A stretch of 64,000 nt of DNA from positions 1 through 64,000 of the forward strand of contig NZ_ADGX01000009.1 of the NCBI RefSeq assembly GCF_000177675.1. Reading direction: 5' to 3'. The notes under the pieces are model-generated. The model saw only the letters and a program-made list of their open reading frames with translations, had not been told where the DNA came from and ran no database searches. Made by a program: the position numbers and the translations under genes. Below are positions 34,847-61,173 of this stretch, one piece after another (positions within the stretch are counted from its first letter, which is position 1; every line of letters starts with the position of its first letter). Source of the DNA: Parafrankia sp. EUN1f. Lineage in GTDB: Bacteria > Actinomycetota > Actinomycetes > Frankiales > Frankiaceae.

Positions 34847-35413
34847 ATGATTGAAATCTTCGACGGGAGTGACGCGGCCCGCCTCGCCACGGTCCTCTCG
34901 CTTCGGAGGGCCGCATTCTCCGGCAGCCGGCGCGATCCGGCCCACCTCGACGCCTGGTCGTCGGACACGTACGACCGCGACTGCCGGCACATCGTGATGA
35001 CGGACGACACCGGCGCTCCGGTCGCCGCGGTGCGGGTCGTCCTCGAAGGCCGCTGGCCGCTGCAGGACCGCTATGACGGGCCCCTGGAGCAGACGAGGGG
35101 CGCGGAGTTCGGTCGGCTCTGCGTGCTGCGGCGGGAGACCGCCGACGCCAGGAACCTGTACGAGCTGATGGTCAACGCCGCCCGGCACTGCGTCGCGTTA
35201 CAACGGCCGATGATGTACGGCCTGACCATCGCACCCTTCTGGCGAGCCCTGGCCCGGGCGGGCGTTCCCCTGACGCCGCTCTCCGGCCCGATCCAGGCCT
35301 ACGGCGAGGAGGAGAACGTCATCCTCTTCGACGCCCATGATCTGATCGCCTTCTACGACGGCTGGCGCTCGCACCGGGCCACGCCGGACCACGGCGGACA
35401 CGGTGACCGGTGA
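34847..35413 (+). CDS. GNAT-fold acyltransferase resembling autoinducer synthases
   Basis: 188 residues. The layout MIEIFDGSDAARLATVLSLRRAAFSG, WSSDTYDRDCRHIVMTDDTGAPVAAVRVV, then AEFGRLCVLRRE resembles LuxI/FeeM-type N-acyl amino acid or acyl-homoserine lactone synthases, in which the Glu/Arg-containing strand precedes the acyl-donor site. Similarity is only by pattern. The ATG at 34847 has AAAGGA 7 bases upstream; its stop overlaps the amidase start as GTGA. It may load an acyl group on the amino acid-like product of the block (inference). Confidence 0.7.
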   Translation: MIEIFDGSDAARLATVLSLRRAAFSGSRRDPAHLDAWSSDTYDRDCRHIVMTDDTGAPVAAVRVVLEGRWPLQDRYDGPLEQTRGAEFGRLCVLRRETADARNLYELMVNAARHCVALQRPMMYGLTIAPFWRALARAGVPLTPLSGPIQAYGEEENVILFDAHDLIAFYDGWRSHRATPDHGGHGDR

Positions 35414-36909
35414 GCGGGCCTGAGCGCCCCGGGACGATCCCGGCCCGCGTTCTCGGGGAGCGGGCGATGCGGAAGCTGGCGGAGAACGCCACCCCCGGCA
35501 GCCTGCAGGAGACGGCCCGACTGCTGCGCACGGGGGAGCTCTCCCCACGGCAGGTCCTCGACGACTGCCACCGGCGCGCGACCCAGGCGAACGCGGCGCT
35601 GAACTGCTACGTCACCATCGGCGCGGTGCAGGCCCTGGAACAGGCGCTGGAGCAGGCGCTATCCCGCACCCGCACCCGCACGCCGGACGATCGGCCCCTG
35701 CTGTGGGGAATCCCGACCTCCGTCAAGGACCTGACCCCCACCGAGGGAATGCGCACGACCTTCGCGTCCCGTGCGTTCGCGGAGCACGTACCGCCGCACG
35801 ACGCGCCGGTGGTCGGACGGATGAAGGCTGCCGGCACGGTCGTGTTCGCGAAGACGAGCACGTCCGAGTTCGGCATCCTCCCGGTCACCGAGCCCGAGCT
35901 GAACGGTATCTGCCGAAATCCCTGGGATCACACGCTCAGCGCCGGCGGGTCGAGCGGAGGCGCCGCCGCGAGTGTCGCGGCCGGGGTCACCGCCGTCGCG
36001 CACGGAAGTGACGGGGCGGGATCGCTGCGCATCCCCGCCTCGTGCTGCGGGGTCTTCGCGGTCATGCCGGGGCCGGGCCGCCTTCCCGCGACCCCGCGCC
36101 CGACCCTGGGCGCGGGCGCCCAGGACGGTGTTGTCAGCCGCACGGTCGCGGACGCGATCTACTGGCTGACCGCGTTGGGTGCGCTCGACCTCGACGAGGT
36201 GGCCCTGGCGGTGTCCGAGGATCCGTGGCCGGCGGTCGACCACCGGGTTGTGATGACGAACGTCCCGCCGGTCGACTGCGAGGTCGACCCGGCGTGCACC
36301 GCCGCCGCCGTGGCGGCCGCGGACCTGCTGGCAGGGGCGGGGTGCCGCGTCGAGGAGGTGTCACCGGACTGGTCGGCCGACGCGGTTCTCGACGACCTGA
36401 TGCTGGTGCGCAGCACGGTTCCGGTGGCGTACGGGGATCCTCGGCCCGAGCTGCTGGACGCGACGACGCGGGCGGGCCTCGAGCTTGCCGGCCGGACCAG
36501 CGCGCTCGACCTGCACCGGGCCATCGCACGGCTCGGCGCATACACCCAGCGGGCCAGCCGCCTGCTCGCCGAAGGCGACGTCCTGCTGACACCGACCGTC
36601 GCGAGGCCGTCGGTCCCGCACGGCTGGGTCACCAGCCCCGCACATCCGGCGGACGTCTTCCGACGCGCGGCGCACTTCGCGCCGTTCGCCGCGTTCGCCA
36701 ACCTCGCGGGCCTGTGCGCGGTCTCGCTGCCGCTGGGCGCAGCGGGTGCAGCGGGTGCACCCGGTGCACCGGGTGTCGGTGGACCCGTTCCGGTCGGGGT
36801 CCAGCTCATGGCACGGCCGCGAGACCTGGCGGGCCTGCTCGGGCTGGCCCTGCGGCTGGAACGGCTCGCCCCCTGGGCGGACCGGGTGCCGCCCGTCTGG
36901 GTCGGCTGA
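35410..36909 (+). CDS. Amidase-signature-family hydrolase
   Basis: 499-residue amidase. The catalytic triad is Lys106 (SVKD), cis-Ser181 (in GGSSGG) and Ser205 (DGAGSLRIPAS), with the spacing of the family. It hydrolyses an amide bond; substrates of this family range from simple amides to peptide amides and acyl-amino acids. An Ala/Gly/Pro repeat (AAGAAGAPGAPGVGG) near residue 447 is encoded by a short tandem repeat. The GTG start overlaps the GNAT stop (GTGA). Translational coupling suggests that acyltransferase and amidase act in one pathway, for example adding and removing an acyl group. Confidence 0.92.
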   Translation: MSGPERPGTIPARVLGERAMRKLAENATPGSLQETARLLRTGELSPRQVLDDCHRRATQANAALNCYVTIGAVQALEQALEQALSRTRTRTPDDRPLLWGIPTSVKDLTPTEGMRTTFASRAFAEHVPPHDAPVVGRMKAAGTVVFAKTSTSEFGILPVTEPELNGICRNPWDHTLSAGGSSGGAAASVAAGVTAVAHGSDGAGSLRIPASCCGVFAVMPGPGRLPATPRPTLGAGAQDGVVSRTVADAIYWLTALGALDLDEVALAVSEDPWPAVDHRVVMTNVPPVDCEVDPACTAAAVAAADLLAGAGCRVEEVSPDWSADAVLDDLMLVRSTVPVAYGDPRPELLDATTRAGLELAGRTSALDLHRAIARLGAYTQRASRLLAEGDVLLTPTVARPSVPHGWVTSPAHPADVFRRAAHFAPFAAFANLAGLCAVSLPLGAAGAAGAPGAPGVGGPVPVGVQLMARPRDLAGLLGLALRLERLAPWADRVPPVWVG

Positions 36910-36952: not shown

Positions 36953-38326
36953 TTGACAACCTCCGAAACGCTCAGGCCGATCTCGGCGCCTGCCAGCCCC
37001 CGCTTCTACAACGCCGCATCGCTCGACGGCCTGCTCGAGCGGGCCGGCCTCGCCGGGCCCGACCGCCTGATGGCCCGCGCCGTCGCGGCTGTGCTGCCGT
37101 TCCGCGTCAACGACTACGTGGTCGACGCGCTCATCGACTGGGATGCGGCCCCCGACGACCCGATCTACCGGCTGGTCTTCCCGCAGCCGGACATGCTGCC
37201 CGCCGAACAGGTGGCGCCGATCGCCCAGCTCCTGGCGCGCGGCGCGCCCACGCGTGAGGTTCAGGCCGCCGCGGCGGCGGTGCGTGCGGCGCTCAATCCG
37301 CATCCGGCGGGCCAGCGGGAGCTCAACGTCCCGGAGCTCGCCGGCACCCGCCTGGACGGGCTCCAGCACAAGTATCCCGAGACCGTCCTGTACTTCCCCG
37401 CCCACGGGCAGACCTGCCACGCGTACTGCACCTACTGTTTCCGGTGGGCGCAGTTCGTCCAGGAGCCGCACCTGCGGATGGCCTCGCGCAACGTCGACGA
37501 CCTCGTGACGTACGTGCGTGCGCATCCCGAGGTCACCGACGTCCTGATCACCGGTGGTGACCCGATGGTGATGTCGGCCGAGATGCTGGCGCGGTGCGTT
37601 CTGCCGCTGCTCGACGAACCCGGGCTCGGGCATCTGCAGTCGATCCGCATCGGCACGAAGTCGTTGTCGTACTGGCCCGCGCGGTTCGTCACGGATCCGG
37701 GGGCCGACGACACCCTGCGGCTGTTCGAACGAGTGGTGGCCAGCGGGCGCAGCCTCGCCCTGATGGCCCACTACTCACACCCGCGTGAGCTGGAGACCGA
37801 CGTCGCCGAGCACGCGGTGCGCCGGGTGCTCTCGACCGGGGCGGTGATCCGGACCCAGGGCCCGGTCATCCGCTCCGTGAACGACGACGCCGGGGCCTGG
37901 GCGGCCATGTGGCAGCGCCAGGTGCGGCTCGGCATGGTTCCGTACTACATGTTCGTGGAGCGTGACACCGGGCCGCGCGGCTACTTCGAGGTCGCGCTGC
38001 TGCGCGCCTACGAGATCTTCAGCGCCGCCTACCGCTCCGTGTCCGGTCTGGCACGCACCGTCCGTGGGCCGGTGATGTCCGCCACGCCGGGAAAGGTCGT
38101 GGTCGACGGTGTTCACACCGTGGGTGCGGAGAAGTACATCGCGCTGAGATTCCTGCAATGCCGTGATCCGGAGCTGGTGAACCGGCCGTTTCTGGCCCGG
38201 TATGATCCGCGGGCGTGCTGGTGGGACGACCTGCGCCCGCCGGTTGGCGCGGCGCCCGGAGTGCCCTGGTCCTCCTGGGGTGTGGACCACGGCCCGGATA
38301 TTCCCCTGGCGCGGGAAGAAAACTGA
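36953..38326 (+). CDS. Lysine-2,3-aminomutase-like radical SAM protein (KamA family)
   Basis: 457 residues. The radical SAM cluster is Cys155, Cys159, Cys162 (CHAYCTYC, CxxxCxxC). KamA-type features are TGGDPMVM, MAHYSHPRELE, QGPVIRSVND and PYYMFVERDTGPRGYF. The PLP-Lys motif PGGGGK of true lysine 2,3-aminomutase is reduced to ATPGK, so PLP binding is plausible but the substrate may differ from lysine. Members convert an alpha-amino acid to a beta-amino acid. The TTG at 36953 has AGGAG 9-10 bases upstream. Same-strand block from the dioxygenase to murD2. Confidence 0.88.
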   Translation: MTTSETLRPISAPASPRFYNAASLDGLLERAGLAGPDRLMARAVAAVLPFRVNDYVVDALIDWDAAPDDPIYRLVFPQPDMLPAEQVAPIAQLLARGAPTREVQAAAAAVRAALNPHPAGQRELNVPELAGTRLDGLQHKYPETVLYFPAHGQTCHAYCTYCFRWAQFVQEPHLRMASRNVDDLVTYVRAHPEVTDVLITGGDPMVMSAEMLARCVLPLLDEPGLGHLQSIRIGTKSLSYWPARFVTDPGADDTLRLFERVVASGRSLALMAHYSHPRELETDVAEHAVRRVLSTGAVIRTQGPVIRSVNDDAGAWAAMWQRQVRLGMVPYYMFVERDTGPRGYFEVALLRAYEIFSAAYRSVSGLARTVRGPVMSATPGKVVVDGVHTVGAEKYIALRFLQCRDPELVNRPFLARYDPRACWWDDLRPPVGAAPGVPWSSWGVDHGPDIPLAREEN

Positions 38327-38461: not shown

Positions 38462-39886
38462 ATGTTCGATCCGGCTGGATTCAGCGAATTCTCCTATGAG
38501 GGCTATTCCTTCGATTCGACCGGGGAGACCTTTCGCGCGTTCTACTCACTGCTGGGGCGGGCTGGGAGCATCGAGTTCGTCGAGACGATCCGCCTCCCGA
38601 ACGGGAACCAGGGTCGGCCCGCTGGAGTGCCGTCGGCGCGGACGGCCCGGCTGCTGGCACTGGCGAGTGGCCTGAGCTACTACAAGGCGGCCGCTCCCGG
38701 CACGGTCCGGGTGGGGTTCGGTCTCACCGACGGAGAGCACACGTTCCTGTCGGAGCTGATCAGGAACGGGCTCGGCGAATTCGCGTTCCGTAACCAGCTG
38801 CCCGGCGCCCTCACGCCCCAGATCACGGGCAAGCGCCTGGACGAGGTCCCCGACGAGATCACGGGCGCGGGCGGCGGCGGAGCTGCTGGCGGCGGTAACG
38901 GAGCTGGCGGCGGTGCGGTGGCCGCGGCACCGGCCGCGCCGCTTGTTCCGGTCGGCGGCGGCAAGGACTCCGTGGTCACGATCGAGTCGCTGAAGGCCGC
39001 GGGCTTCGGCCCGGTGCTCTTCTCCGTCAACGCGTTCGCGCCGATCACCCGCTGCGCGCGGGTCAGCGGGCAGCCACTGGTCTCCGCCCAGAGGTCGATC
39101 GACCCCGCCCTGCTCGAGGCCAACCGGCAGGGGGCTCACAACGGCCATGTGCCCGTCACCGCGGTCGTCAGCCTGATCGCCCTGATGGCGGCGGAGCGCC
39201 TGGGTCTCGGTCCGGTGGTCATGTCCAACGAGCGGTCGGCGGAATACGGAAACCTCTCCTGGAACGGCCACACCATCAATCATCAGTGGTCGAAGAGCAT
39301 TCATTTCGAGGCATTGCTCCGCTCGGCGCTGGAGAGTTCCGGGGGAGCTGCTTCCGGAGGAACCGGTGCCGACGCGTACTTCTCGCTGCTTCGCCCGCTC
39401 TCGGAGCTGGAGATCGCCCGCCGGTTCGCCGGGTTGCCGGCCTATTTCGAGGCTTTCACCAGCTGTAACCGCAGCTTCCGGATCGACGAGTCCGAACGGG
39501 CGTCGTCCTGGTGCCGTGAATGCCCGAAGTGCCAGTTCGTCTTCCTGGTGCTCGCCCCCTTCATGTCGACCGGGCGGCTGACGGAGATCTTCGGGGGAAA
39601 CATGCTCGACGACCCGGCGAACCTCGACGGCTACCTGGAGATCCTGGGTCTTCGCGGGCACAAGCCCTTCGAATGCGTCGGCGAGTACGACGAGGCGCTG
39701 GTCGCCCTGGCCCTGCTGGGGCGCGATTCCGGGTGGGCCCGGGCCCGGCTGGTGGGGCCGCTCACTGACGAGATGAACGCCCAGGGCCAGGCCCCGGCCC
39801 CGGGGCTCGACGCTGCGTTGCTCGAGCCTTCGGCCACCCACTTCATCCCGCAGCCCTTCCGCGAGGCACTCGATGCGCTTGGCTGA
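38462..39886 (+). CDS. murL: MurL-type glycopeptidyl-glutamate epimerase
   Basis: 474-residue cytosolic enzyme. In this family MurL converts the terminal L-Glu of UDP-MurNAc-L-Ala-L-Glu to D-Glu using ATP. The PP-loop-like motif GGGKDS is at residues 165-170, followed by VVTIESLKAAGF. The domain also has SNERSAEYGNLSWNGHTINHQWSKS and a Cys group in SSWCRECPKCQF. A Gly-rich insert (GAGGGGAAGGGNGAGGGA) precedes the PP-loop. The ATG at 38462 follows GGGAGGAAA. It overlaps murD2 by 14 bp, the pair being diagnostic for the MurD2-MurL route. The assignment is by motif pattern and context. Confidence 0.88.
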   Translation: MFDPAGFSEFSYEGYSFDSTGETFRAFYSLLGRAGSIEFVETIRLPNGNQGRPAGVPSARTARLLALASGLSYYKAAAPGTVRVGFGLTDGEHTFLSELIRNGLGEFAFRNQLPGALTPQITGKRLDEVPDEITGAGGGGAAGGGNGAGGGAVAAAPAAPLVPVGGGKDSVVTIESLKAAGFGPVLFSVNAFAPITRCARVSGQPLVSAQRSIDPALLEANRQGAHNGHVPVTAVVSLIALMAAERLGLGPVVMSNERSAEYGNLSWNGHTINHQWSKSIHFEALLRSALESSGGAASGGTGADAYFSLLRPLSELEIARRFAGLPAYFEAFTSCNRSFRIDESERASSWCRECPKCQFVFLVLAPFMSTGRLTEIFGGNMLDDPANLDGYLEILGLRGHKPFECVGEYDEALVALALLGRDSGWARARLVGPLTDEMNAQGQAPAPGLDAALLEPSATHFIPQPFREALDALG

Positions 39887-41273
39887 GATCGCCACCAGGC
39901 GCGTCGGGATCTGGGGTCTCGGCCTGGAGGGGCGCGCCGTCCTCGGCGCCGTCGCGGCCTCGCCCGCCGGGGTGGTCGTCGTGGATGAGCGGGAGGCGTC
40001 CGCGCACGTGGCCGAGACTCTCCCCGGGGTCGAGTACGACTGGGGCGCCGGCAGCCTGGAGCGGCTGCTCGACTGCGACCTCGTCGTGGTGAGCCCGGGG
40101 ATACCGAGGACCCACCCGTTCCTGGAGACGCTGCGGGCGAAGGAGATCCACCTGACCTCGGGCTCCGCGGTCTGGCTCGAGTCCGAGGCCGAGCGGGCCG
40201 TCGGGGTCACCGGCACCAAGGGCAAGAGCACCACGGCGTCCCTCATCCACGCCATCCTGAACCAGCCGACCGGCACCGGCACCGACGCCGACGCCGGCAC
40301 CGGCACCGACGCGGGCGCGGGCGCCGTGCTCGCCGGGAACATCGGCCTGCCGCTGCTGGCCGTGCCGCCGGGCCCGGCCGCGGTGGTCGCGGAGCTGTCG
40401 AGCTACCAGTGCTTCTGGATCACCCGGTCGCCACGGGTGGCCGTCGTCACCAACCTCTACGAGGAGCACCTTCCCTGGCACGGCTCACTGGAGCGGTACT
40501 GGCAGGACAAGGCGCGGATCGCGGTGCACGGCGCCGCGGCGCTGGTCTGCGACGAGCCGACCCTGGCGAAGCTGCTCTCGGTCGAGCCGCGGGTCCGCGG
40601 GCTGCCCACCCTGTTGGCCGCCACGTCCGGCGAGGACATCGTGGACCGCGACGGCACCCGCCTGCTGACGGTGCGCGAGCTGCCGCCGCACCTGCGGGCC
40701 GGCCATCTGGTCTCCAGCGTGCGACTGGCGGTGCTGGCCGCCGGCGCGGCCCTCGAAACGCCGCTGTCGCCGGACGCCGTGCGCCGAGGCCTCGCCGGGC
40801 ATGCGCCCCTCCCACACCGGCTGGAGACGATCAGCCACGGCGGCGGGCTCGTCTGGGTTGACGACACGTTGTCCACCACGGCGAACAGTGTCATCGCCGC
40901 GGTCGAGGCGTTCGACGCCGAGCACACGGTCCTCATCGTCGGCGGCCAGGACCGCGGCATCTCCTACCAGCCGCTCAACGACTTCCTGCTGGGCAGCCCC
41001 CGCAGGGTGGACGTCATCGCGATCCCGTCGAACGGTCCCGCGGTGGTCGCGGAGTTCGGCGAGCGCCACCCGGATCGGGTCCACCCCGCCGCCGGGCTGC
41101 GGGAAGCGGTAGCCCTGGCGGCCCGCCTGGGTTCGCCGGGCTGCCACGTGATTCTCTCGCCGGGCGCGCCGAGCTACGACCGGTACGCGAACTACGCCGA
41201 GAAGTCCGCGGAGTTCCACGACGCGGTGACCCGGCTCTACCCCCCGACCCCCCAGATCGCCCAGATCGCCTGA
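39873..41273 (+). CDS. murD2: MurD2-type UDP-MurNAc-L-Ala--L-Glu ligase
   Basis: 466-residue Mur ligase. The N-terminal UDP-binding domain has VGIWGLGLEGR, the ATP P-loop is GTKGKST at 114-120, and the central domain has ELSSYQCFW and NLYEEHLPWHGSLERYWQDKARI. The C-terminal domain has HRLE, DDTLSTTANSVIAAV and LIVGGQDRG, all close to MurD. MurD2 adds L-Glu rather than D-Glu, and MurL then epimerises it. The pairing with murL supports MurD2 over housekeeping MurD. A Thr-Asp-Ala-Gly repeat (TGTDADAGTGTDAGAGA) near 133-150 is encoded by a hexamer repeat. The ATG at 39873 lies inside murL with GAGG upstream. Confidence 0.9.
   Translation: MRLAEIATRRVGIWGLGLEGRAVLGAVAASPAGVVVVDEREASAHVAETLPGVEYDWGAGSLERLLDCDLVVVSPGIPRTHPFLETLRAKEIHLTSGSAVWLESEAERAVGVTGTKGKSTTASLIHAILNQPTGTGTDADAGTGTDAGAGAVLAGNIGLPLLAVPPGPAAVVAELSSYQCFWITRSPRVAVVTNLYEEHLPWHGSLERYWQDKARIAVHGAAALVCDEPTLAKLLSVEPRVRGLPTLLAATSGEDIVDRDGTRLLTVRELPPHLRAGHLVSSVRLAVLAAGAALETPLSPDAVRRGLAGHAPLPHRLETISHGGGLVWVDDTLSTTANSVIAAVEAFDAEHTVLIVGGQDRGISYQPLNDFLLGSPRRVDVIAIPSNGPAVVAEFGERHPDRVHPAAGLREAVALAARLGSPGCHVILSPGAPSYDRYANYAEKSAEFHDAVTRLYPPTPQIAQIA
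40265..40322 (+). repeat. GC-rich coding repeat in murD2
   Basis: Imperfect copies of ACCGGCACCGACGCC encode the Thr-Gly-Thr-Asp-Ala insert beside the P-loop. It is in frame and absent from the MurD core, so it is probably a surface loop. Confidence 0.7.
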
Positions 41274-47917: not shown

Positions 47918-48460
47918 ATGAGTGAGATGGACGATCTTCGTGCCGTGGTCGAGAAACTGGCGGCCAGGGTCCGCGCCCTGGAGGACCAGGTCGAGATCAT
48001 GCAGCTCGTCGCCCAGTACGGGCCCGCCGTCGACAGCGGCTCGGCCGAGGCCACCGCGGCGCTGTGGACCGAGGACGGCACCTTCGACGCCGTTCCCCAC
48101 CTGCGGATGCGGGGTCGGGGCGACATCGTCGACATGGTCAACGGCGGCCACCAAAGCCTGATCCGCAGCGGCTGCGGCCACGTTCTGACGGTGCCGCATG
48201 TCGTGGTCGACGGCGATGAGGCGACCGGCCGCAGCTACGCGCTCAACATCCGCTGGGACGCCGGCGCCGACCGGTTCTGGGTGGCCCGGGTCTCCGCGAA
48301 CACCTGGCGGTGGGCGCGCACCGCGCAGGGCTGGCGCATCACCGAACGGGTCAACGCCAACCTCGACGGCACGGCCGAACACCGCGAGATGCTGGCACCG
48401 CCGCGGCAGCCCCCGTCGGAGCAGTCGTCCGTTCGTGGCGCCGACCGCGGGTCGACCTGA
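47918..48460 (+). CDS. SnoaL-like protein with N-terminal coiled coil
   Basis: 180 residues. An N-terminal heptad-rich helix (MDDLRAVVEKLAARVRALEDQVEI) is followed by an NTF2-like barrel (VAQYGPAVDSGSAEATAALWTEDGTFD, HVLTVPHVVVDGDEATGRSYALNI) and a disordered tail. The coiled coil may mediate oligomerisation. The group contains dehydratases and isomerases. The ATG at 47918 follows GGAGGGGCT by 9 bases. In line with the flanking dehydrogenases. Confidence 0.85.
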   Translation: MSEMDDLRAVVEKLAARVRALEDQVEIMQLVAQYGPAVDSGSAEATAALWTEDGTFDAVPHLRMRGRGDIVDMVNGGHQSLIRSGCGHVLTVPHVVVDGDEATGRSYALNIRWDAGADRFWVARVSANTWRWARTAQGWRITERVNANLDGTAEHREMLAPPRQPPSEQSSVRGADRGST

Positions 48461-52963: not shown

Positions 52964-54253
52964 ATGGCGCATGCCGGCAAGCCGGCGGAGGCCAGCTGGA
53001 CCGGGCGTTACCCGGACCTGGGCACCGGGCTCGTGTCGTATGAGGACTCGATCTCCCCGGAGTTCTACGAGCTCGAACGCGAGGCGATCTTCAAGCGGGC
53101 CTGGCTGAACGTCGGCCGGGTCGAGCAGCTGCCCCGCAAAGGAAGCTTCTTCACCAAGAACCTGGACGTCGCGAAGACGGCCGTGATCATCGCGCGCGAC
53201 ATGGACGGCCGGGTTCGGGCCTTCCACAACGTCTGCCGGCACCGGGGGAACAAGCTGGTGTGGGAGAACACCCCGAAGCACGAGACGAGCGGTGTATGTC
53301 GCCAGTTCATGTGCCGGTACCACGGCTGGCGCTACGGGCTCGACGGGCAGCTGAAGTTCGTCCTCCAGGAGGAGGAGTTCTTCGACTTCGACAAGGCCGA
53401 CTTCCCGCTGGTGTCCGTCCACTGCGAGGTCTGGGAAGGCTTCATCTTCATCAACCTGGCGGACGAGCCCAGCCAGACGCTGCCCGAGTTTCTCGGGCCG
53501 ATGGTGCGTGGGCTCGAAGGCTATCCGTTCCATCTCGTCACCGAGCGGTACGCGTACAAGGCTGATCTCCTCAGCAACTGGAAGATCTACCTGGACGCGT
53601 TCCAGGAGTACTACCACGCCTCCGTCCTGCACTCGCAGCAGCAGGTCCCGAGCCTGCGAAGCTTCGAGTCCGGTTTCAAGGCCCCGTATTACCAGACCGA
53701 CGGGCCGCACCGGCTGGTGAGCACCGGTGGCTGGAAGGGCGTGCCGCGCCATCTGCTGCCGCGCGACCAGATGTACCCGATCGAGCCCAACATCGAGGCC
53801 GGGCTCATGGGGCCCTGGCAGCGCCCGGACATTCCCGAGCTCGACCCGGCGAACCTGCCGGCGGGCCTCAACCCCGGCGGTCTCGACCCCTGGTCGATCT
53901 CGAATTTCCAGATCTTCCCGAACTTCGTGATTCTGGTCTACGAGCGGGGCTGGTACCTCACGTACCAATACTGGCCGACCTCCCACAACACCCATTCGTG
54001 GGAGATGTCGTACTACTTTCCGCAGTCCCAGAATGCCAGCGAGCGGATCCGGCACGAGCTCACCGCCGTCATCTCCAAGGAAGCCGGACTCCAGGATGCC
54101 GGCACCCTCGACGGCACCCAGATGGGCCTGGAATCCCGGGTCATCGACAGGTACCCGCTCTCCGACCAGGAGATCACCGTTCGGCATCTCCACAAGGTCA
54201 CCGAGAACTGGGTGCAGTCCTACCTCCGTGCCGAAAAGGCGGTGCGGGCATGA
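52964..54253 (+). CDS. Rieske aromatic-ring-hydroxylating oxygenase alpha subunit (1)
   Basis: 429-residue oxygenase. Rieske ligands are Cys91, His93, Cys117 and His120 (spacing CxH-X23-CxxH, longer than the usual 15-17). The mononuclear iron site has His218 and His223 in DAFQEYYHASVLH, with a late Asp probably in LDPWSISNF. The protein starts at the ATG at 52964, preceded by GGAGGG. It lacks a neighbouring classical beta subunit; a 115-residue protein overlaps it instead. It hydroxylates a ring or related substrate using electrons from a ferredoxin, probably the one at 56299. Confidence 0.94.
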   Translation: MAHAGKPAEASWTGRYPDLGTGLVSYEDSISPEFYELEREAIFKRAWLNVGRVEQLPRKGSFFTKNLDVAKTAVIIARDMDGRVRAFHNVCRHRGNKLVWENTPKHETSGVCRQFMCRYHGWRYGLDGQLKFVLQEEEFFDFDKADFPLVSVHCEVWEGFIFINLADEPSQTLPEFLGPMVRGLEGYPFHLVTERYAYKADLLSNWKIYLDAFQEYYHASVLHSQQQVPSLRSFESGFKAPYYQTDGPHRLVSTGGWKGVPRHLLPRDQMYPIEPNIEAGLMGPWQRPDIPELDPANLPAGLNPGGLDPWSISNFQIFPNFVILVYERGWYLTYQYWPTSHNTHSWEMSYYFPQSQNASERIRHELTAVISKEAGLQDAGTLDGTQMGLESRVIDRYPLSDQEITVRHLHKVTENWVQSYLRAEKAVRA

Positions 54254-54597
54254 GCGACCCGTCGGGCGGGCCGTTGCTCCCGGCGGAGTTCGCCGACCTC
54301 GAGCCCTTCGCGCGACGCTGGTGCCTCGCGACCGAGCCGGCCCGGTACGCCGAGCGGCTCAACAGCACGATGGCCGACATGGAGGCCTTCTACGACGCCG
54401 CGTTCGGGCGGGTACGGGACGCCATGGCCTATCTCGACAGGTTCCCCCTGCAGGAACTTTCCGCAACGCAGGAGAACCTTCTCCACCTGGTCTATTCGCT
54501 CATCATGGTGTCGCTGCCCGTCGAGGTCTGGCACCAGCCCCGGGTCATCGATTCCGGGACCGCCTACTTCGACCGTTACCTGGAGCCCGCACCGTGA
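54250..54597 (+). CDS. Small oxygenase-associated protein (1)
   Basis: 115-residue, helical, soluble protein that begins LLPAEFADLEPFARRWC after a short lead, with PVEVWHQPRVIDSG near the end. I recognise no family. A clear paralog at 59220 also directly follows a Rieske alpha gene with the same ATGA overlap, so it is very probably a partner of the oxygenase. It could be a small subunit or an assembly or regulatory protein. Overlaps the next gene as GTGA. Confidence 0.85.
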   Translation: MSDPSGGPLLPAEFADLEPFARRWCLATEPARYAERLNSTMADMEAFYDAAFGRVRDAMAYLDRFPLQELSATQENLLHLVYSLIMVSLPVEVWHQPRVIDSGTAYFDRYLEPAP

Positions 54598-55438
54598 CGC
54601 CGACCATCATCTGCGAGCCGCTCGCCGCGACGGTCGGCGCCGAGGTCAGCGGGGTCGACGCGGAACAGCTCGGTCAGGACGACGCGGTCGCCGGAGCCGT
54701 CCTGGCGGCACTCGAGCAGTACGGAGTGCTCGTATTCCGCGGTCTGGACCTCGACCCGGAATCCCAGGTCGCCTTCTCCCGGCGCCTCGGCGAGATCGAC
54801 TACGAGCCGGGGCACCACCCCGTCCCCGGGATCTACCGGGTCACCCTCGATGCGTCGAAGAACTCCTCGGCGGACTACCTGAAGGCCACGTTCGAGTGGC
54901 ATATGGACGGCTGCACCCCGCTGCACGGAGAGCCACCGCAGAAGGCGACGGTGCTCAGCGCCAAGGCGGTGGCGGCGACCGGCGGGGAGACCGAGTTCGC
55001 CAGCACCTACGCCGCCTACGACGCGCTCGGTGACGAGGAGAAGGAGGCGTTCGCCGCCCTGCGGGTCGTCCACGCCATGGAGGCCTCCCAACGCCGGGTC
55101 ACCCCCGATCCGACCCCTGAGCAGCTCGCGCGGTGGCGGGCCCGCCCGACGTCGGTCCACCCGCTGGTGTGGAGGCGCCGCACCGGCCGGCGGTCGCTCG
55201 TCATCGGCGTCCAGGCCGGCCACGTCGTCGACATGGATCTCGCCGAGGGCCGGCGGCTGCTGCAGGACCTGCTCGACCGGGCGACGGCGCCCGAACGGGT
55301 CTACCGCCACCGGTGGTCCGTCGGCGACACCGTCATCTGGGACAACACCGGGGTGGTGCACCGGGCGGCGCCCTACGACCCGCGCTCGCCGCGGGAGATG
55401 CTGCGGACGACCGTGTTCGGTGACGAGCCGATCCGTTG

Positions 55439-55439
<1 letters not shown>
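54594..55439 (+). CDS. TauD/TfdA-family Fe(II)/2-oxoglutarate dioxygenase
   Basis: 281-residue oxygenase. Iron ligands are His103-x-Asp105 (WHMDG) and His256 in GVVHRA, with the 2-oxoglutarate Arg in REMLRTTVFG. The start resembles taurine/alpha-ketoglutarate dioxygenases (PLAATVGAEVSGVD). It cleaves or hydroxylates a substrate such as a sulfonate, aryloxyacid or ether. The GTG at 54594 overlaps the upstream stop (GTGA), so it is part of the oxygenase operon. Confidence 0.93.
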
Positions 55440-55492
<53 letters not shown>

Positions 55493-55510
55493 AGCTTGCC
55501 GCCGGGCTGG

Positions 55511-56164
55511 TCAGCCGGCCTGACCTGCGGCGCCCTGACCTGCGACGGCGTGGCCGGCGACGGCGTGGCCGCTCGCCAGGCGGCGCTCTCCCTCCAGGGC
55601 GCGGATCTCACGTTCGATCACGGCGACCATCTCGGCGTGGCCGACGGTGACGTCGAAGTCCTCCTCGATCTGCAGGAATCGGGAGATCGCGGTCATGGCG
55701 AGGATCAGCGACACCGGCGGCCATCGCTCACGGTCCACTCCGTAGTCCTTGAGCACCTCGGTGAGGGCATCGAGCTCCAGCTTGCGGAAGGTACGCGAAT
55801 AGGCCGCTATCTCGGCTCGGATCGCCTTGCGGTGATTGGCCAGTGCGGTGAACTCCATCGTGAGTGCGTTGCTGGAGAAGTCGTGGGTCAGGTCCCAGAG
55901 GGCCCACAGCGGCTGCGGGGACTGCAGGATGAGCCGCAGGCGCGCCAGGCTCCGCTCGGCGCCGCGCCGGAACAGCTCGATGTACAGGCCGTCCATCGTC
56001 CCGAAGTAGTAGTAGACGAGCCCGTTGTTGACACCGGCCTTGCTGGCCAGCCGGCGGGTGGTGACGGCGGCGTAGCCCTCTTCCAGCATCAGGCTCTCGG
56101 TGGCGTCGAGAAGCGCTGTGCGGGTGATCGAGTCCTCGACGGGGCTCCGCCGTGCCGGCGCCAT
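55511..56164 (-). CDS. TetR-family regulator, likely controller of the oxygenase operons
   Basis: 217 residues. The helix-turn-helix is at about 15-62 (ALLDATESLMLEEGYAAVTTRRLASKAGVNNGLVYYYFGTMDGLYIELF). The C-terminal domain is helical, with a short His/Ala/Val/Gly repeat tail (GHAVAGHAVAGQGAAGQ). The ATG at 56164 has GGGAGGAC 4-5 bases upstream. It sits between the two oxygenase operons; operator-like motifs at 52878, 52901 and 56278 flank both, and the last lies between it and the ferredoxin gene. A repressor lifted by a pathway metabolite is the simplest model (inference). Confidence 0.93.
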   Translation of the reverse strand: MAPARRSPVEDSITRTALLDATESLMLEEGYAAVTTRRLASKAGVNNGLVYYYFGTMDGLYIELFRRGAERSLARLRLILQSPQPLWALWDLTHDFSSNALTMEFTALANHRKAIRAEIAAYSRTFRKLELDALTEVLKDYGVDRERWPPVSLILAMTAISRFLQIEEDFDVTVGHAEMVAVIEREIRALEGERRLASGHAVAGHAVAGQGAAGQAG

Positions 56165-56277
56165 GAACGTCCTCCCGCAGGTCGGCGGTGCTGCAGCTGC
56201 ACTCAGCTGCCCTCAACTGCACTCCCAGTGTTACGCCGCCGGCACCGGTGGGCTGCTCGCACATCCGGCCATCGTGA

Positions 56278-56297
56278 TGTTAGTCATATGGAGAACA
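56278..56297. promoter_or_regulatory. 20-bp TetR-operator-like motif, site 3
   Basis: TGTTAGTCATATGGAGAACA, 14 of 20 positions identical in all three sites. It overlaps the GGAG ribosome site of the ferredoxin gene and ends two bases before its start. A bound repressor would block both transcription and the leader. Confidence 0.75.
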
Positions 56298-56298
56298 C

Positions 56299-56580
56299 GT
56301 GTCAGATGACGTCGAGGTGACCATCAGGCTCGGCGGCAGGACGATCACGACCGCCTACCACCGGGGCTCCACGCTGCTGCAGACTGCGCGGTCCGCGGGC
56401 CTGCGGCCCCCCTCGTCGTGTGAGACGGGAAGCTGCGCCACCTGCATGGCCCAGATCGTGCGGGGGCGGGCCGAGATGCGCAACAACGACGCGCTGACCC
56501 TCGACGAGGTCGCCGAGGGCTGGGTGCTCACCTGCCAGGCCGAACCCGCCACCCCGACCGTCGAAGTGGTCTACGAGTGA
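56299..56580 (+). CDS. 2Fe-2S plant-type ferredoxin
   Basis: 93-residue electron carrier. Cluster ligands are Cys41, Cys46, Cys49 (CETGSCATC) and Cys79 (LTCQ). The pattern is of the adrenodoxin/plant-type fold, not Rieske. It probably feeds electrons to the two Rieske oxygenases; no reductase gene is present in the window. The GTG start has GGAG 5 bases upstream, embedded in operator site 3. Its stop overlaps or abuts the next gene. Confidence 0.93.
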   Translation: MSDDVEVTIRLGGRTITTAYHRGSTLLQTARSAGLRPPSSCETGSCATCMAQIVRGRAEMRNNDALTLDEVAEGWVLTCQAEPATPTVEVVYE

Positions 56581-56594
56581 GGAGGCAGACAGGT

Positions 56595-57359
56595 ATGTCA
56601 GGTACCAGGCCGCGGAGGTCCCGGGTGGCGGTGGTCACCGGCGGGGCGTCGGGCATCGGCGAGGCCACCTGCCACCAGCTGGCCGAACGAGGTCACCGCG
56701 TCGCCGTGCTCGACCTCGACCGCGAGACGGCGGACCGGGTGGCCAAACAGGTGCGGGCCGCCGGCGGGCAGGCCATCGGCCTCGCCGCGGATGTCACCGA
56801 CCGGCCCGCCCTCGACGCAGCCTTCGCCGAGATCCGTTCGACGCTGGGGCCGACGGAGATCCTGGTGACCAGCGCGGGCCTCGTCGCGTTCGACCCGTTC
56901 GAGCAGATCACGCTCGACCAGTGGAACCACGTCCTCGACGTGAACCTCACCGGCACGTTCCACAGCTGCCAGGCGGCGATCCCCGACATGGTCACGGCGC
57001 GCTGGGGCCGCATCGTCACGATCGCCTCGTCGAGCGCCCAGCGCGGTTCGCCGAACATGGCGCACTACGCCGCGGCCAAGGGCGGTGTGATCGTCCTGAC
57101 CAAGTCGCTGGCCCGTGCGTACGCCTCGCACGGAATCACCGTCAACAGCATCCCGCCGTCGGGCATCGAGACGCCGATGCAGCACCAGTCGCAGGCCGAG
57201 GGGAACCTCCCGGCCAATGAGGTGATGGCCGCGACCATCCCGCTCGGTCACCTCGGGACTCCCGACGACATCGCCGCGGCAGCCGTGTTCCTCGCCTCCG
57301 AAGAGGCCGGTTTCATCACCGGGCAGGTCCTCGGGGTCAACGGCGGGTCCGTGCTTTGA
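56595..57359 (+). CDS. Short-chain dehydrogenase/reductase
   Basis: 254 residues, classical SDR: TGGASGIGEA, a variant of NNAG read as TSAG, catalytic Ser in IASSSAQ, YAAAK with Tyr/Lys, and GQVLGVNGGSVL at the end. The ATG at 56595 has GGAGG 9 bases upstream; an in-frame GTG at 56577 overlapping the ferredoxin stop is the alternative. It probably oxidises the hydroxylated product of the oxygenases. Stop overlaps the next start (TTGA). Confidence 0.93.
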   Translation: MSGTRPRRSRVAVVTGGASGIGEATCHQLAERGHRVAVLDLDRETADRVAKQVRAAGGQAIGLAADVTDRPALDAAFAEIRSTLGPTEILVTSAGLVAFDPFEQITLDQWNHVLDVNLTGTFHSCQAAIPDMVTARWGRIVTIASSSAQRGSPNMAHYAAAKGGVIVLTKSLARAYASHGITVNSIPPSGIETPMQHQSQAEGNLPANEVMAATIPLGHLGTPDDIAAAAVFLASEEAGFITGQVLGVNGGSVL

Positions 57360-57937
57360 ACCGCTCCGCCACGCCCCGGCTGGGCCCGCTGCCGGTCGCG
57401 CAATGGTCCGAACAGGACCGCGAGACGCTGCGTGGCAGTTTCGCCCGCGCCGATCGCTACCTCTCCGGTGACGCCGAAGCGCCACCGATGCCACCCATCC
57501 TCGGCCTTCTCGCCCGGCACTCGCGGGTGGGTGGGCCCTGGCTCGCCTTCAACGGCCGCCTGCTCGACGCCGGGACGCTCGACCCGCGCGACCGGGAGCT
57601 GCTGATTCTGCGGGTCGCCTCCCGGACGGGTTGCCGCTACCTGTGGGTGGAACATGTCGGCCTCGCCCGCTCCGTAGGGCTGACGCGGGAGCGAATCGCC
57701 GCCGTCACCGAGGGCCCCGAGGCCGCCGGGTGGGACGAGCGGGACCGTGACCTGCTGCGCGCCACCGATCAGCTCGTTGCCGACCATGCCCTCGACGACG
57801 CTCTCTGGGCGCGACTGGCCTCGTATCTCGACGAGCGACAGCTCCTTGAGATGATCTTCGTGGTCGGAAGCTACACGTGCCTCGCCATGGTGCTGAACAG
57901 CGTTGGGCTGGAACCGGCGACCAAGCCCGTTCCCTGA
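57356..57937 (+). CDS. Carboxymuconolactone-decarboxylase-like protein
   Basis: 193-residue helical protein of the CMD/AhpD-like superfamily. The motif region is RDRELLILRVASRTGCRYLWVEHVGLARSVGL, with one Cys rather than the CxxC of AhpD. It is therefore more like the decarboxylase or a gamma-lactone-type member than a thiol peroxidase. Roles in aromatic catabolism are known for the family. The TTG start overlaps the SDR stop. Confidence 0.9.
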   Translation: MNRSATPRLGPLPVAQWSEQDRETLRGSFARADRYLSGDAEAPPMPPILGLLARHSRVGGPWLAFNGRLLDAGTLDPRDRELLILRVASRTGCRYLWVEHVGLARSVGLTRERIAAVTEGPEAAGWDERDRDLLRATDQLVADHALDDALWARLASYLDERQLLEMIFVVGSYTCLAMVLNSVGLEPATKPVP

Positions 57938-57963
57938 CACCGATCCTTCGAAGGAGGCGGCCC

Positions 57964-59223
57964 ATGCCACGTTTCCCGAAACCACCGGAAGGCAGCTGGA
58001 CCCAGCATTACCCGGAGCTTGGAACGGCCCCGGTGTCCTACGAGGACTCGACCTCACCCGAGTACTACCAGCGCGAGAAGAAGGCCGTCTTCAAGCGTGC
58101 GTGGCTGCATGTCGGCCGGGTGGAACAGCTGCCCCGCGTCGGCAGCTACTTCACCAAGGACATCCGTGCCGCCAACGCGTCGATCGTCGTCGTCCGCGAC
58201 CGGGCGGGGCAGGTCCGCGCGTTCCACAACGTCTGCCGCCACCGTGGTAACAAGCTCGCCTGGACGGAGGACCCGAAGCTCGACAGCCAGGGCATCTGCC
58301 GGCAGTTCACCTGCAAGTACCACGGCTGGCGCTACGACCTCGACGGTGCGCTGAAGTTCATCCAGCAGGAGGGGGAGTTCTTCGACGTCGACAAGAGCAG
58401 GTACGGCCTGGCGCCGGTGCACTGCGACGTATGGGCCGGGTTCGTCTTCGTGAACTTCGCCCCGGAGCCGGAGCAGTCACTGCGCGAGTTCCTCGGCCCG
58501 ATGGTGACGGCGCTGGAAGGCTATCCCTTCGACAAGCTCACGGCCCGCTTCGGGTACAGCACGACGATCCAGTCGAACTGGAAGCTGTACATGGACGCGT
58601 TCGCCGAGTTCTACCACGCGCCGATCCTGCACGCGAAGCAGTCGCCGGAGAAGTATTCGGCGGCCGCCGCGCAGGCCGGCTTCGAGGCGCCGCACTACCA
58701 GCTCGACGGGCCGCACCGGTTGGTGAGCACCTCCGGCGTCCGTTTCTGGGAGATGGACGCGGACCTGCTCAAGCCGATGGAGATCATCACTCGCAGTGGG
58801 CTGTTCGGCCCGTGGGAGAAGGCCGAGCTGGGGGAGATGCCACCCGGGCTCAACCCGGCCGGGTGCGACCCGTGGGGGCTGGACTCGTTCCAGCTGTTCC
58901 CGAACTTCGTGATCCTGATCTGGAGCCAGGGCTGGTACATCACCTACCAGTACTGGCCGACGGCGTACAACACCCATGTCTTCGAGGGCAGCGCGTACTT
59001 CCCGCCGGCCACGAACATCAGGGAGCGGGTCGCGCAGGAGATGGCGGCGGTGACGTTCAAGGAGTTCGCGCTGCAGGACTCCAACACGCTCGAGGCCACC
59101 CAGATGATGCTCGAGAACGACTACGTCAACGAGTTCCATCTCAATGACCAGGAAATACTCTGCCGACACCTGCACAAGGTCGTCCGTGACTGGGTCGCGG
59201 ACTTCGAGGGGGCCCGCCGATGA
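57964..59223 (+). CDS. Rieske aromatic-ring-hydroxylating oxygenase alpha subunit (2)
   Basis: 419-residue paralog of the protein at 52964. It keeps the same Rieske ligands (Cys91, His93, Cys117, His120) and the iron ligands His218 and His223 in DAFAEFYHAPILH. The N-terminus (GSWTQHYPELGTAPVSYEDSTSPEYY) matches the first copy. The ATG at 57964 has AAGGAGG 6-7 bases upstream. The two copies are diverged enough to have different substrates or successive steps. The stop overlaps the small partner gene as ATGA. Confidence 0.94.
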   Translation: MPRFPKPPEGSWTQHYPELGTAPVSYEDSTSPEYYQREKKAVFKRAWLHVGRVEQLPRVGSYFTKDIRAANASIVVVRDRAGQVRAFHNVCRHRGNKLAWTEDPKLDSQGICRQFTCKYHGWRYDLDGALKFIQQEGEFFDVDKSRYGLAPVHCDVWAGFVFVNFAPEPEQSLREFLGPMVTALEGYPFDKLTARFGYSTTIQSNWKLYMDAFAEFYHAPILHAKQSPEKYSAAAAQAGFEAPHYQLDGPHRLVSTSGVRFWEMDADLLKPMEIITRSGLFGPWEKAELGEMPPGLNPAGCDPWGLDSFQLFPNFVILIWSQGWYITYQYWPTAYNTHVFEGSAYFPPATNIRERVAQEMAAVTFKEFALQDSNTLEATQMMLENDYVNEFHLNDQEILCRHLHKVVRDWVADFEGARR

Positions 59224-59552
59224 CCACGCTGCTGCCGGCGGAGTTCGCCGACCTCGAACCCTTCGCCGCGAAATGGTGCCTGCCGACCGAACATGAGCGG
59301 TACCACACCCGGCTGGCCTCGACCATGGACGAGATGCAGGCGCTGTACGACGCCGCGAAACCTCGGGTCACCGACGCCATGGTGTACCTGGAGAAGCTCC
59401 CGTTCGACGCGTTACCCGAGGACGCGGTGAACCTCCTGCACCTGCTGTACTCCACGATCGAGGTGTCGTTCCCGGTCGAGGTGTGGCGCCAGCCCCGGGT
59501 CCCCGACACCGGATCGGCGTCCTTCGACTGCTTCATCGAGCCAGTGCCCTGA
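59220..59552 (+). CDS. Small oxygenase-associated protein (2)
   Basis: 110-residue paralog of the protein at 54250: LLPAEFADLEPFAAKWC, STMDEMQALYDAA, LLHLLYSTIEVSFPVEVWRQPRVPD. The conserved pieces span the whole length, which argues for a defined fold. Always placed directly after a Rieske alpha subunit in this window. Function unknown. Its TGA overlaps the next ATG (TGATG). Confidence 0.85.
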   Translation: MTTLLPAEFADLEPFAAKWCLPTEHERYHTRLASTMDEMQALYDAAKPRVTDAMVYLEKLPFDALPEDAVNLLHLLYSTIEVSFPVEVWRQPRVPDTGSASFDCFIEPVP

Positions 59553-60832
59553 TGGCGACGGCCCCGACCACCATCCTGCGCGCGCGGCGCTGGCTGGACG
59601 TCGACGCCGGGGAGGTCCGGTCGCCGGCGGTGATCGTCGTGGAAGGCGACCGGATCAGCGCGGTCAACCCGACCGATCTCCCCGCGGGCATGGACCCGGA
59701 TGCACCCGCGGGCGTGGATGCGGTCGAGATCGACCTGGGCGATGTCACCCTGCTGCCCGGGTTGATGGACATGGAGCTCAACCTGCTCATCGGCGGGCCG
59801 GAGACCCCGACGGGCCTGCCGCTGCCGATGCACGGCGTCCAGGACGACCCCGCGTACCGCACGCTGCGGGCAACCGTGAACGCCCGCACGACCCTGCACG
59901 CCGGCTTCACCACGGTTCGCAACCTCGGGCTGATGGTCAAGACCGGGGGCTACCTGCTCGACGTCGCGCTGGCGCGCTCGATCGAGCAGGGCTGGGTGGA
60001 AGGGCCACGGATCATTCCGGCCGGTCACGCGGTCACGCCGTACGGCGGGCACCTCGACCCGACCGTGTTCCAGCGCCTGGCACCCGGGATCATGCCGTTG
60101 AGCGTCGCGGAGGGGATCGCGAACGGGGTGGCCGACGTGCGGGCCTGCGTCCGCTACCAGATCCGCCACGGCGCCAAGGTGATCAAGGTGTCTGCGTCCG
60201 GCGGCGTGATGTCGCACAGCACCGGCCCGGGAGCCCAGCAGTACTCCGACGAGGAGCTGGCGGCGATCGCCGACGAGGCGCACCGGGCCGACATCCGCGT
60301 CGCCGCGCACGCCGTCGGCGACCGGGCGGTGCAGGCCTGCGTCCGGGCGGGCATCGACTGCATCGAGCACGGCTTCCTCGCCAGCGACGAAACCCTGCGG
60401 ATGATGGTCGATCACGGCACCTTCCTGGTGTCGACGACGTACCTGACCGACGCCATGGACATCGCGCGGGCAGCACCCGAGCTGCGGAAGAAGGCGGCCG
60501 AGGTGTTCCCCCGCGCCAAGGCGATGCTGCCCAGAGCCGTCGCCGCCGGCGTCAGGATCGCCTGCGGCACCGACGCCCCGGCAGTTCCGCACGGCGACAA
60601 CGCCAAGGAGCTGGTCGCGCTGGTGTCGCGGGGCATGACCCCGGTACAGGCGCTGCGGGCCGCGACCGTGACCAGCGCGGAGCTGATCGGGCTGGACCAC
60701 GAGCTCGGCCGGCTGCGGGAGGGCTACCTCGCCGACATCATCGCCGTCCCCGGCGACCCCTCCCAGGACATCACCCGCACCCAGGACGTCCGGTTCGTCA
60801 TGAAGGACGGGCACATCCACAGGAAACCCTGA
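59552..60832 (+). CDS. Amidohydrolase-superfamily protein lacking the N-terminal HxH
   Basis: 426-residue TIM-barrel hydrolase like imidazolonepropionase/Xaa-Pro-dipeptidase-type amidohydrolases. Later metal-site residues are present: Lys in KVIKVSASGGV, His in VAAHAVGD, His in CIEHGF, Asp in CGTDAP. The usual first site PGLxDxHxH is MDMELNL, so both His are replaced (Glu and Asn). The enzyme is thus mono-metal or altered, unless a different residue substitutes. It may hydrolyse a lactone or amide formed by the pathway. Last enzyme of the second oxygenase operon. Confidence 0.88.
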   Translation: MATAPTTILRARRWLDVDAGEVRSPAVIVVEGDRISAVNPTDLPAGMDPDAPAGVDAVEIDLGDVTLLPGLMDMELNLLIGGPETPTGLPLPMHGVQDDPAYRTLRATVNARTTLHAGFTTVRNLGLMVKTGGYLLDVALARSIEQGWVEGPRIIPAGHAVTPYGGHLDPTVFQRLAPGIMPLSVAEGIANGVADVRACVRYQIRHGAKVIKVSASGGVMSHSTGPGAQQYSDEELAAIADEAHRADIRVAAHAVGDRAVQACVRAGIDCIEHGFLASDETLRMMVDHGTFLVSTTYLTDAMDIARAAPELRKKAAEVFPRAKAMLPRAVAAGVRIACGTDAPAVPHGDNAKELVALVSRGMTPVQALRAATVTSAELIGLDHELGRLREGYLADIIAVPGDPSQDITRTQDVRFVMKDGHIHRKP

Positions 60833-60867
60833 TCGGCACCATCGATCTGAACGTGAACGGAGCAGGA

Positions 60868-61173
60868 ATGGCAAGCGGTGTTCTGATCGTCGAATCGCGT
60901 CCCGCCTCGCCGGAGGAGGCCGCGGCCTATCACGACTGGTACGACAACACGCACCTGCCCGAGATCCTCAAGGTGGACGGCTTCGTCGCCGCCCGGCGGC
61001 TCGCGTCCCTCGGCGGCGACACCTTCATCGTGATCTACGAGATCGACGGCGACGTCGAGGCGGCGAAGGCCGCGCTGGCTCAGGCACAGGCCTCCGGGAC
61101 GATGTCGCGCCCGACAGGAGTCGAACTCGCACCACCTCCGACGGTTCGCTACTTCACCCAGCTCATCCGCTGA
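60868..61173 (+). CDS. Small dimeric alpha/beta-barrel (EthD-like) protein
   Basis: 101-residue protein with the ferredoxin-like fold pattern VLIVESRPASPEEAAAYHDWYDNTHLPEILKVDGFVAARRL, close to EthD/stress-responsive barrel proteins. The conserved His in NTHLPEI is typical. Members act as small oxygenase auxiliaries or isomerases. The ATG at 60868 has GGAGCAGGA upstream. Same strand, 35 bp after the amidohydrolase, and probably the last gene of the operon. Confidence 0.85.
   Translation: MASGVLIVESRPASPEEAAAYHDWYDNTHLPEILKVDGFVAARRLASLGGDTFIVIYEIDGDVEAAKAALAQAQASGTMSRPTGVELAPPPTVRYFTQLIR

What the first reader, a model, noticed from the sequence alone, without database searches (positions are those of the whole stretch)
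52964..59552. Rieske oxygenase paired with a novel ~110-residue protein, twice
Seen: two diverged Rieske alpha subunits, each overlapped (ATGA) by a paralogous 110-115-residue gene with conserved stretches across its whole length. No classical beta subunit or reductase is nearby; a single 2Fe-2S ferredoxin lies between the two sets. The Rieske Cys-His spacing is X23 instead of the usual 15-17 in both. Inference: the small protein is an obligatory partner, perhaps a minimal beta subunit.
Basis: partly seen in the sequence, partly recalled or inferred. Interest (0 to 1): 0.68.

Follow-up and report, generated by a model that had tools for sequence, protein, structure and literature searches.

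The report
Helical partner protein of Rieske oxygenases
A small helical protein that no database names travels with one branch of the Rieske oxygenases (iron enzymes that oxidise aromatic and related compounds) and is predicted to bind them, which suggests a type of enzyme subunit that has been overlooked; the binding still has to be shown at the bench.

Summary
Two Rieske alpha genes (52964-54253, 57964-59223) each overlap by ATGA a paralogous gene for a 115- or 110-residue protein; both alphas have C-X-H-X23-C-X2-H; no classical beta gene (PF00866) lies on this contig.

The small protein matches nothing in Pfam, NCBIfam, PDB or BFVD. It occurs in Actinomycetota and on plasmids of Pseudomonadota; of 156 distinct copies all but about four adjoin a Rieske gene, and the exceptions look like broken clusters or a contig edge. 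Among 395 genomes of the class, the same 49 carry the alpha subfamily and the small protein. Alpha and small distances correlate, and true pairs beat swapped pairs 14/14. One alpha clade lost the small gene, so it is not universally obligatory.

AlphaFold gives a confident four-helix bundle with a conserved but disordered tail. In a natural locus read through in frame, it docks on alpha (pTM 0.90) and the tail orders into a strand.

Best reading: a dedicated, non-catalytic Rieske oxygenase subunit, perhaps working like a beta subunit but not homologous to it. 'Obligatory partner' is largely supported, 'minimal beta subunit' is not. X23 is not tied to the small protein. Binding and role remain unproven.

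The parts
52964..54253 (+). Rieske oxygenase alpha 1 (429 aa)
   Evidence: PF00355 and PF00848 matches; C-X-H-X23-C-X2-H; ligand and bridging positions conserved in the alignment
54250..54597 (+). small partner protein 1 (115 aa), ATGA overlap with alpha 1
   Evidence: no family match
54594..55439 (+). TauD-family 2-oxoglutarate dioxygenase, overlaps small 1
   Evidence: PF02668 E=9e-60; follows alpha-small also in L004, L006-L013, L015-L019
55511..56164 (-). TetR-family regulator
   Evidence: PF00440; conserved in related clusters
56299..56580 (+). plant-type 2Fe-2S ferredoxin, likely electron donor (inference)
   Evidence: PF00111 E=2.2e-14
56577..57359 (+). SDR dehydrogenase (start at 56577 or a downstream start)
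   Evidence: PF13561; conserved in cluster
57356..57937 (+). carboxymuconolactone decarboxylase/AhpD-like protein
   Evidence: PF02627; conserved upstream of alpha-small in many clusters
57964..59223 (+). Rieske oxygenase alpha 2 (419 aa)
   Evidence: PF00355 and PF00848 matches; X23 spacing
59220..59552 (+). small partner protein 2 (110 aa), ATGA overlap with alpha 2
   Evidence: AlphaFold four-helix bundle, pLDDT 90, disordered tail 91-110
59552..60832 (+). amidohydrolase-family protein directly behind small 2
   Evidence: PF01979; conserved neighbour in most related loci
47918..48460 (+). SnoaL_4 (NTF2-like) protein, possible but unproven beta-like or separate enzyme
   Evidence: PF13577 E=5e-31

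Best explanation
The 110-115 residue protein is a dedicated, non-catalytic subunit of one branch of the Rieske oxygenases. It is made next to its own alpha subunit by overlapping genes. It folds as a four-helix bundle, docks on alpha, and its conserved C-terminal tail, disordered when free, becomes ordered and adds a short beta strand, most likely to an alpha sheet. One copy per alpha would give a C3 assembly such as alpha3-gamma3 (inferred from the C3 symmetry of known Rieske oxygenases). Its role would be to stabilise or tune the oxygenase (trimer, substrate entrance, or ferredoxin docking), while alpha keeps all the chemistry and a Fer2-type ferredoxin or VanB-type reductase supplies electrons. 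Shown by computation: gene coupling, phylogenetic co-occurrence, matched distances, the isolated fold, absence of conserved metal ligands. Predicted: the docking. Inferred: stoichiometry, docking site, role, substrate.
For: Adjacency: 62/62 small copies in 35 genomes of the order adjoin a Rieske gene. Of 156 distinct copies, 146 lie downstream within 250 bp of a Rieske ORF, 90 of these overlapping it. Gene order is reversed in three proteobacterial loci (L103, L106 third pair, L127). Co-occurrence: the same 49 of 395 genomes have both, the other 346 neither at the thresholds used. Co-evolution: distance correlation r=0.78 (126 actinobacterial pairs), true pairing better than swapped pairing 14/14. 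Fold: four helices, pLDDT 90; tail blocks 91-110 at 69 and 58, yet the tail is as conserved as the rest (2.92 against 2.99 bits in 52 actinobacterial sequences). Docking: the in-frame read-through of natural locus L033 gives pTM 0.90 over 544 residues, tail blocks 93/88/85, strand 537-540; a freely floating small domain would hold pTM below about 0.79. No invariant Cys or His in the small protein.
Against: 13 of 73 subfamily alphas in the order lack the small gene beside them, so alpha can do without it, or uses it from elsewhere. Three copies lie without a Rieske neighbour (L039, L104 linC block, L124), though these look like broken clusters. Paired direct-coupling analysis gave no usable signal (Neff about 50). 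No experiment exists.
Confidence: 0.7

Rival explanations
1. The small protein is a dedicated assembly chaperone or maturation factor: it binds nascent or apo alpha (folding, Fe-S or Fe insertion, trimerisation) and leaves the finished enzyme.
For: Same adjacency, coupling and co-evolution evidence; ATGA overlap would give co-translational delivery; disordered conserved tail ordering on binding; alphas that lost it exist.
Against: A strict 1:1 pairing per alpha, even for paralogues in one genome, is more typical of a subunit than of a chaperone; no conserved Cys/His for metal handling.
Confidence: 0.15
2. The small protein is a separate pathway protein (binding protein or enzyme) linked to the Rieske gene only because both serve one pathway.
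For: Gene clusters are conserved in several genera with TauD, SDR, CMD and amidohydrolase genes; L124 keeps a small gene next to a cupin gene, and the linC block keeps it next to an EthD gene, without Rieske.
Against: It stays with the Rieske gene when all other neighbours change, in both orders; helical bundle with few invariant polar residues (R27, R31, nearly E87); docking prediction.
Confidence: 0.09
3. It is a strongly reduced classical beta subunit (homologue of the NTF2-like beta of alpha3-beta3 oxygenases).
For: Position directly behind alpha is that of beta genes; no PF00866 gene on the contig.
Against: All-helical fold at pLDDT 90, whereas beta subunits are NTF2-like; no PF00866 or PDB match for a 63-row profile; SnoaL_4 proteins of the NTF2-like superfamily occur near the pair in 44 of 91 loci, so a beta-like protein can be present as well.
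Confidence: 0.03
4. The oxygenase is alpha plus an NTF2-like SnoaL_4 subunit, and the small protein is a third, regulatory or electron-docking component.
For: SnoaL_4-like gene in 44 of 91 loci longer than 7 kb, including one by the third pair of this genome and one 4.5 kb upstream of alpha 1; alpha, small, then SnoaL_4 in Acinetobacter, Novosphingobium, Paroceanicella and Azospirillum plasmids.
Against: About half of the loci show no such gene; where present in actinobacteria it is usually behind the amidohydrolase, not beside alpha; SnoaL_4 proteins are often separate enzymes.
Confidence: 0.1

Closest known systems
alpha3-type Rieske oxygenases (CntA carnitine monooxygenase, Stc2 stachydrine demethylase, GbcA glycine betaine monooxygenase)
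   Same: The best sequence match in PDB is stachydrine demethylase (3vca, E=8e-27), the best NCBIfam match GbcA (128 bits, cut-off 670), the best fold match CntA; alpha has Glu at the bridging position before the two His ligands, as I recall for CntA.
   Different: Only about 20% identical; far below the GbcA cut-off; X23 spacing; accompanied by a small helical protein, which these do not have in the published subunit table (PMC12445004).
alpha3-beta3 Rieske dioxygenases (NDO, BPDO, HcaEF, TPADO)
   Same: Two-gene alpha plus small-gene unit; alpha has PF00355 and PF00848.
   Different: Their small subunit is an NTF2-like beta (PF00866); this one is a helical bundle with no match.
SkaCDFG oxygenase of skatole degraders (Rhodococcus; PMC13101512) and gene1684-1690 of Acinetobacter piscicola p38 (PMC11434297)
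   Same: The p38 numbering (1684 alpha, 1687 styrene monooxygenase, 1690 ferredoxin) fits the order alpha, small, SnoaL_4, monooxygenase, flavin reductase, SDR, ferredoxin of L101; alpha is induced by skatole there.
   Different: Neither paper, as searched here, discusses a small protein; identity of gene1685 with this family is inferred from order only.

Membership tests
Rieske oxygenase alpha subunit | Rieske domain and ring-hydroxylating catalytic domain | tested here: met
   PF00355 E=2e-15 to 4e-14 and PF00848 E=4e-36 to 7e-44 for both alphas
Rieske oxygenase alpha subunit | C-X-H-X15-17-C-X2-H cluster motif | tested here: inconclusive
   All four ligands present, but spacing is X23 in 155 of 169 alphas with a small neighbour, X17 or X18 in 14
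Rieske oxygenase alpha subunit | 2-His-1-carboxylate iron site and acidic bridge | tested here: met
   E215-X2-H218-X4-H223 and D372 (alpha 2 numbering) invariant in the four own copies; assignment of roles is from knowledge of CntA and NDO
Classical beta subunit (Ring_hydroxyl_B, PF00866) | Match to PF00866 | tested here: not met
   No match at E<=1 for the window proteins, and PF00866 not among the weak matches of the 63 members
Classical beta subunit (Ring_hydroxyl_B, PF00866) | NTF2-like alpha+beta fold | tested here: not met
   AlphaFold: four helices, no strand, pLDDT 90; no PDB fold match at E<=0.001
Classical beta subunit (Ring_hydroxyl_B, PF00866) | Stable stoichiometric complex with alpha | not testable with these tools
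   Only a docking prediction
Ferredoxin or other electron-transfer component | Conserved Cys/His cluster ligands or cofactor motif | tested here: not met
   Only two Cys/His columns are even the commonest residue, each in about half of the sequences (C20, H74)

The most novel reading that the evidence does not exclude
A subunit type not described for Rieske oxygenases: a helical protein with a beta-augmenting tail that forms a heterohexamer with alpha (for example alpha3-gamma3) and controls its stability, substrate access or electron partner, spread over Actinomycetota and Pseudomonadota and overlooked because it matches no family.
Probability: 0.6. Interest if true: 0.75.

Novelty: new variant of a known kind. 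Interest (0 to 1): 0.62.

Why it matters
Rieske oxygenases are among the best-studied bacterial oxidases, and a 2025 review lists only alpha3, alpha3-beta3, alpha3-alpha'3 and alpha3-alpha3 assemblies (PMC12445004). A conserved non-homologous partner in a large uncharacterised branch would add a new assembly type. It could also explain failures when such alphas are expressed alone, and would give a simple test of what a second subunit does for these enzymes, because a natural clade that lost it exists for comparison.

Tried and rejected
Sequence and profile searches of the small protein against Pfam, NCBIfam and PDB: nothing. Fold searches of the small model in PDB and BFVD: nothing at E<=0.001. 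Viral contigs: none. A natural fusion of alpha and small was looked for and not found; an in-frame locus (L033) was folded instead. Direct-coupling analysis on 139 pairs showed hub artefacts only. Five alpha columns separate alphas with and without the small gene, but this is confounded by descent and not used. A phylum scan centred on the genome of L048 gave 1 of 297 genomes and no proteobacterial chromosomes. Ten literature searches found no paper on this protein. Considered and rejected: electron carrier (no conserved ligands), reduced beta subunit (wrong fold), X23 as a signature of the partner (uncoupled), random adjacency.

Full report
What is there. The window (contig C388 of a 9.35 Mb genome whose closest relatives in the searches are Frankiaceae) holds two Rieske alpha genes, each overlapped by ATGA by a gene for a 115- or 110-residue protein. 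Small1 in turn overlaps a TauD-family gene, and small2 is followed at once by an amidohydrolase gene. Between the sets lie a TetR gene, a plant-type ferredoxin, an SDR and a CMD-family gene. The genome has two more copies of the small gene on other contigs; both are directly behind a Rieske alpha. Classical beta genes (PF00866) occur only on other contigs, once strongly, on C309, which also carries a classical alpha; so the search can find them. Ferredoxin reductase domains are on other contigs; one FAD_binding_6 plus Fer2 protein is on C359, about 13 kb from the third alpha-small pair.

The alpha subunits. Both have Rieske and catalytic domains. The four cluster ligands are present with X23 between the pairs; the iron-site residues and an acidic bridge are conserved. 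Nearest solved relatives are stachydrine demethylase by sequence and CntA by fold, both alpha3 enzymes without beta (PMC12445004). Missing beta is therefore not unusual for such relatives. The subfamily is sharply set off: in 35 genomes of the order, 73 alphas score 629-805 bits and everything else below 240.

The small protein. No Pfam, NCBIfam or PDB relative was found with single sequences or with a 63-row profile. AlphaFold gives four helices (7-19, 24-33, 36-58, 67-89), mean pLDDT 90, and a low-confidence tail 91-110. No PDB or BFVD fold matches at E<=0.001, though small helical bundles often give weak matches only. The tail is as conserved as the core, which is expected of a segment that folds on a partner. 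There is no invariant Cys or His.

Link to the Rieske gene. In the order, all 62 copies adjoin a Rieske gene, and 60 of 73 alphas have the small gene. Of 13 without, five were placed in a tree; they form one nested clade, which fits a single loss (support 99 for the clade, 88 for its place). In 395 genomes of the class the lists of carriers are identical, 49 genomes each (because of first-look limits only the best candidates per genome were scored). Over all loci there are 156 distinct small sequences: 146 downstream within 250 bp (90 overlapping) and five counted as upstream, of which L018, L142 and L153 are cases flanked by a second alpha or cut by a locus edge. Remaining cases: L039 (alpha missing, amidohydrolase still follows), the linC block of HCH-degrader plasmids flanked by IS6100, L124 (only a cupin left), L014 (contig end), L127 (small ahead of Rieske). 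Distant members at 24-43% identity on plasmids of Sphingomonas, Novosphingobium, Acinetobacter, Cupriavidus, Variovorax, Azospirillum and Rhodococcus mostly sit by a Rieske gene too. Alpha and small distances correlate (r=0.78 in actinobacteria), and in 14 loci with two pairs the true pairing always beats the swap.

Physical contact. Locus L033 has alpha, one TGA, and small in the same frame. Read through with TGA as glycine, with alpha-only and small-only rows as alignment, AlphaFold gives pTM 0.90 and pLDDT 91.5 over 544 residues; the linker 421-437 is disordered, the small domain is at about 94-98, and the tail rises to 93, 88 and 85 per block and gains a strand 537-540. Since the small protein alone has no strand, the partner is presumably in alpha. 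If the small domain floated, pTM could not exceed roughly 0.79 (430 of 544 residues).

Mechanism. The best-supported reading is a bound, non-catalytic subunit that stabilises or tunes alpha. For classical beta subunits, published work gives structural, ferredoxin-docking and selectivity roles (PMC9361823, PMC12445004); the small protein may do the same work with another fold. A chaperone role cannot be told apart with these data. Conservation of the clusters in several genera points to a catabolic pathway whose substrate is unknown. One proteobacterial cluster of the same order is linked to skatole breakdown by gene numbering in PMC11434297.

Known or new. Alpha is an ordinary, if divergent, Rieske oxygenase. 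The small protein fails the tests for a beta subunit and for an electron carrier. No described assembly has such a partner in the review read. I rate it a new variant of a known kind.

Noticed in passing
window 38462-41273: MurL-like epimerase (NF041275, 361 bits, below its cut-off of 700) directly followed by a MurD-type ligase, next to a KamA-family radical SAM gene (36956-38326) and an amidase (35410-36909): possibly a biosynthetic cluster that borrowed cell-wall enzymes.
   Followed up: partly
L104 4971-5333, L122 5971-6333: On HCH-degrader plasmids a distant small gene sits behind linC and an EthD gene between two IS6100 copies, without Rieske gene; its function there is unexplained.
   Followed up: partly
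L161 4779-6823: An alpha without small gene is followed by a TauD gene that seems frameshifted, where related loci have alpha, small, TauD: a cluster in decay.
   Followed up: no
window 60853-61173: 106-residue ORF with no Pfam or NCBIfam match, kept behind the amidohydrolase at 48-86% identity in other genera.
   Followed up: no
window 47918-48460: SnoaL_4 protein upstream; similar genes lie in 44 of 91 related loci, often behind the amidohydrolase.
   Followed up: partly
L098 1489-1809: A mycobacterial paralogue of the small protein has a TGA near the end of the tail, repeated in several genomes, so its tail seems a few residues shorter.
   Followed up: no
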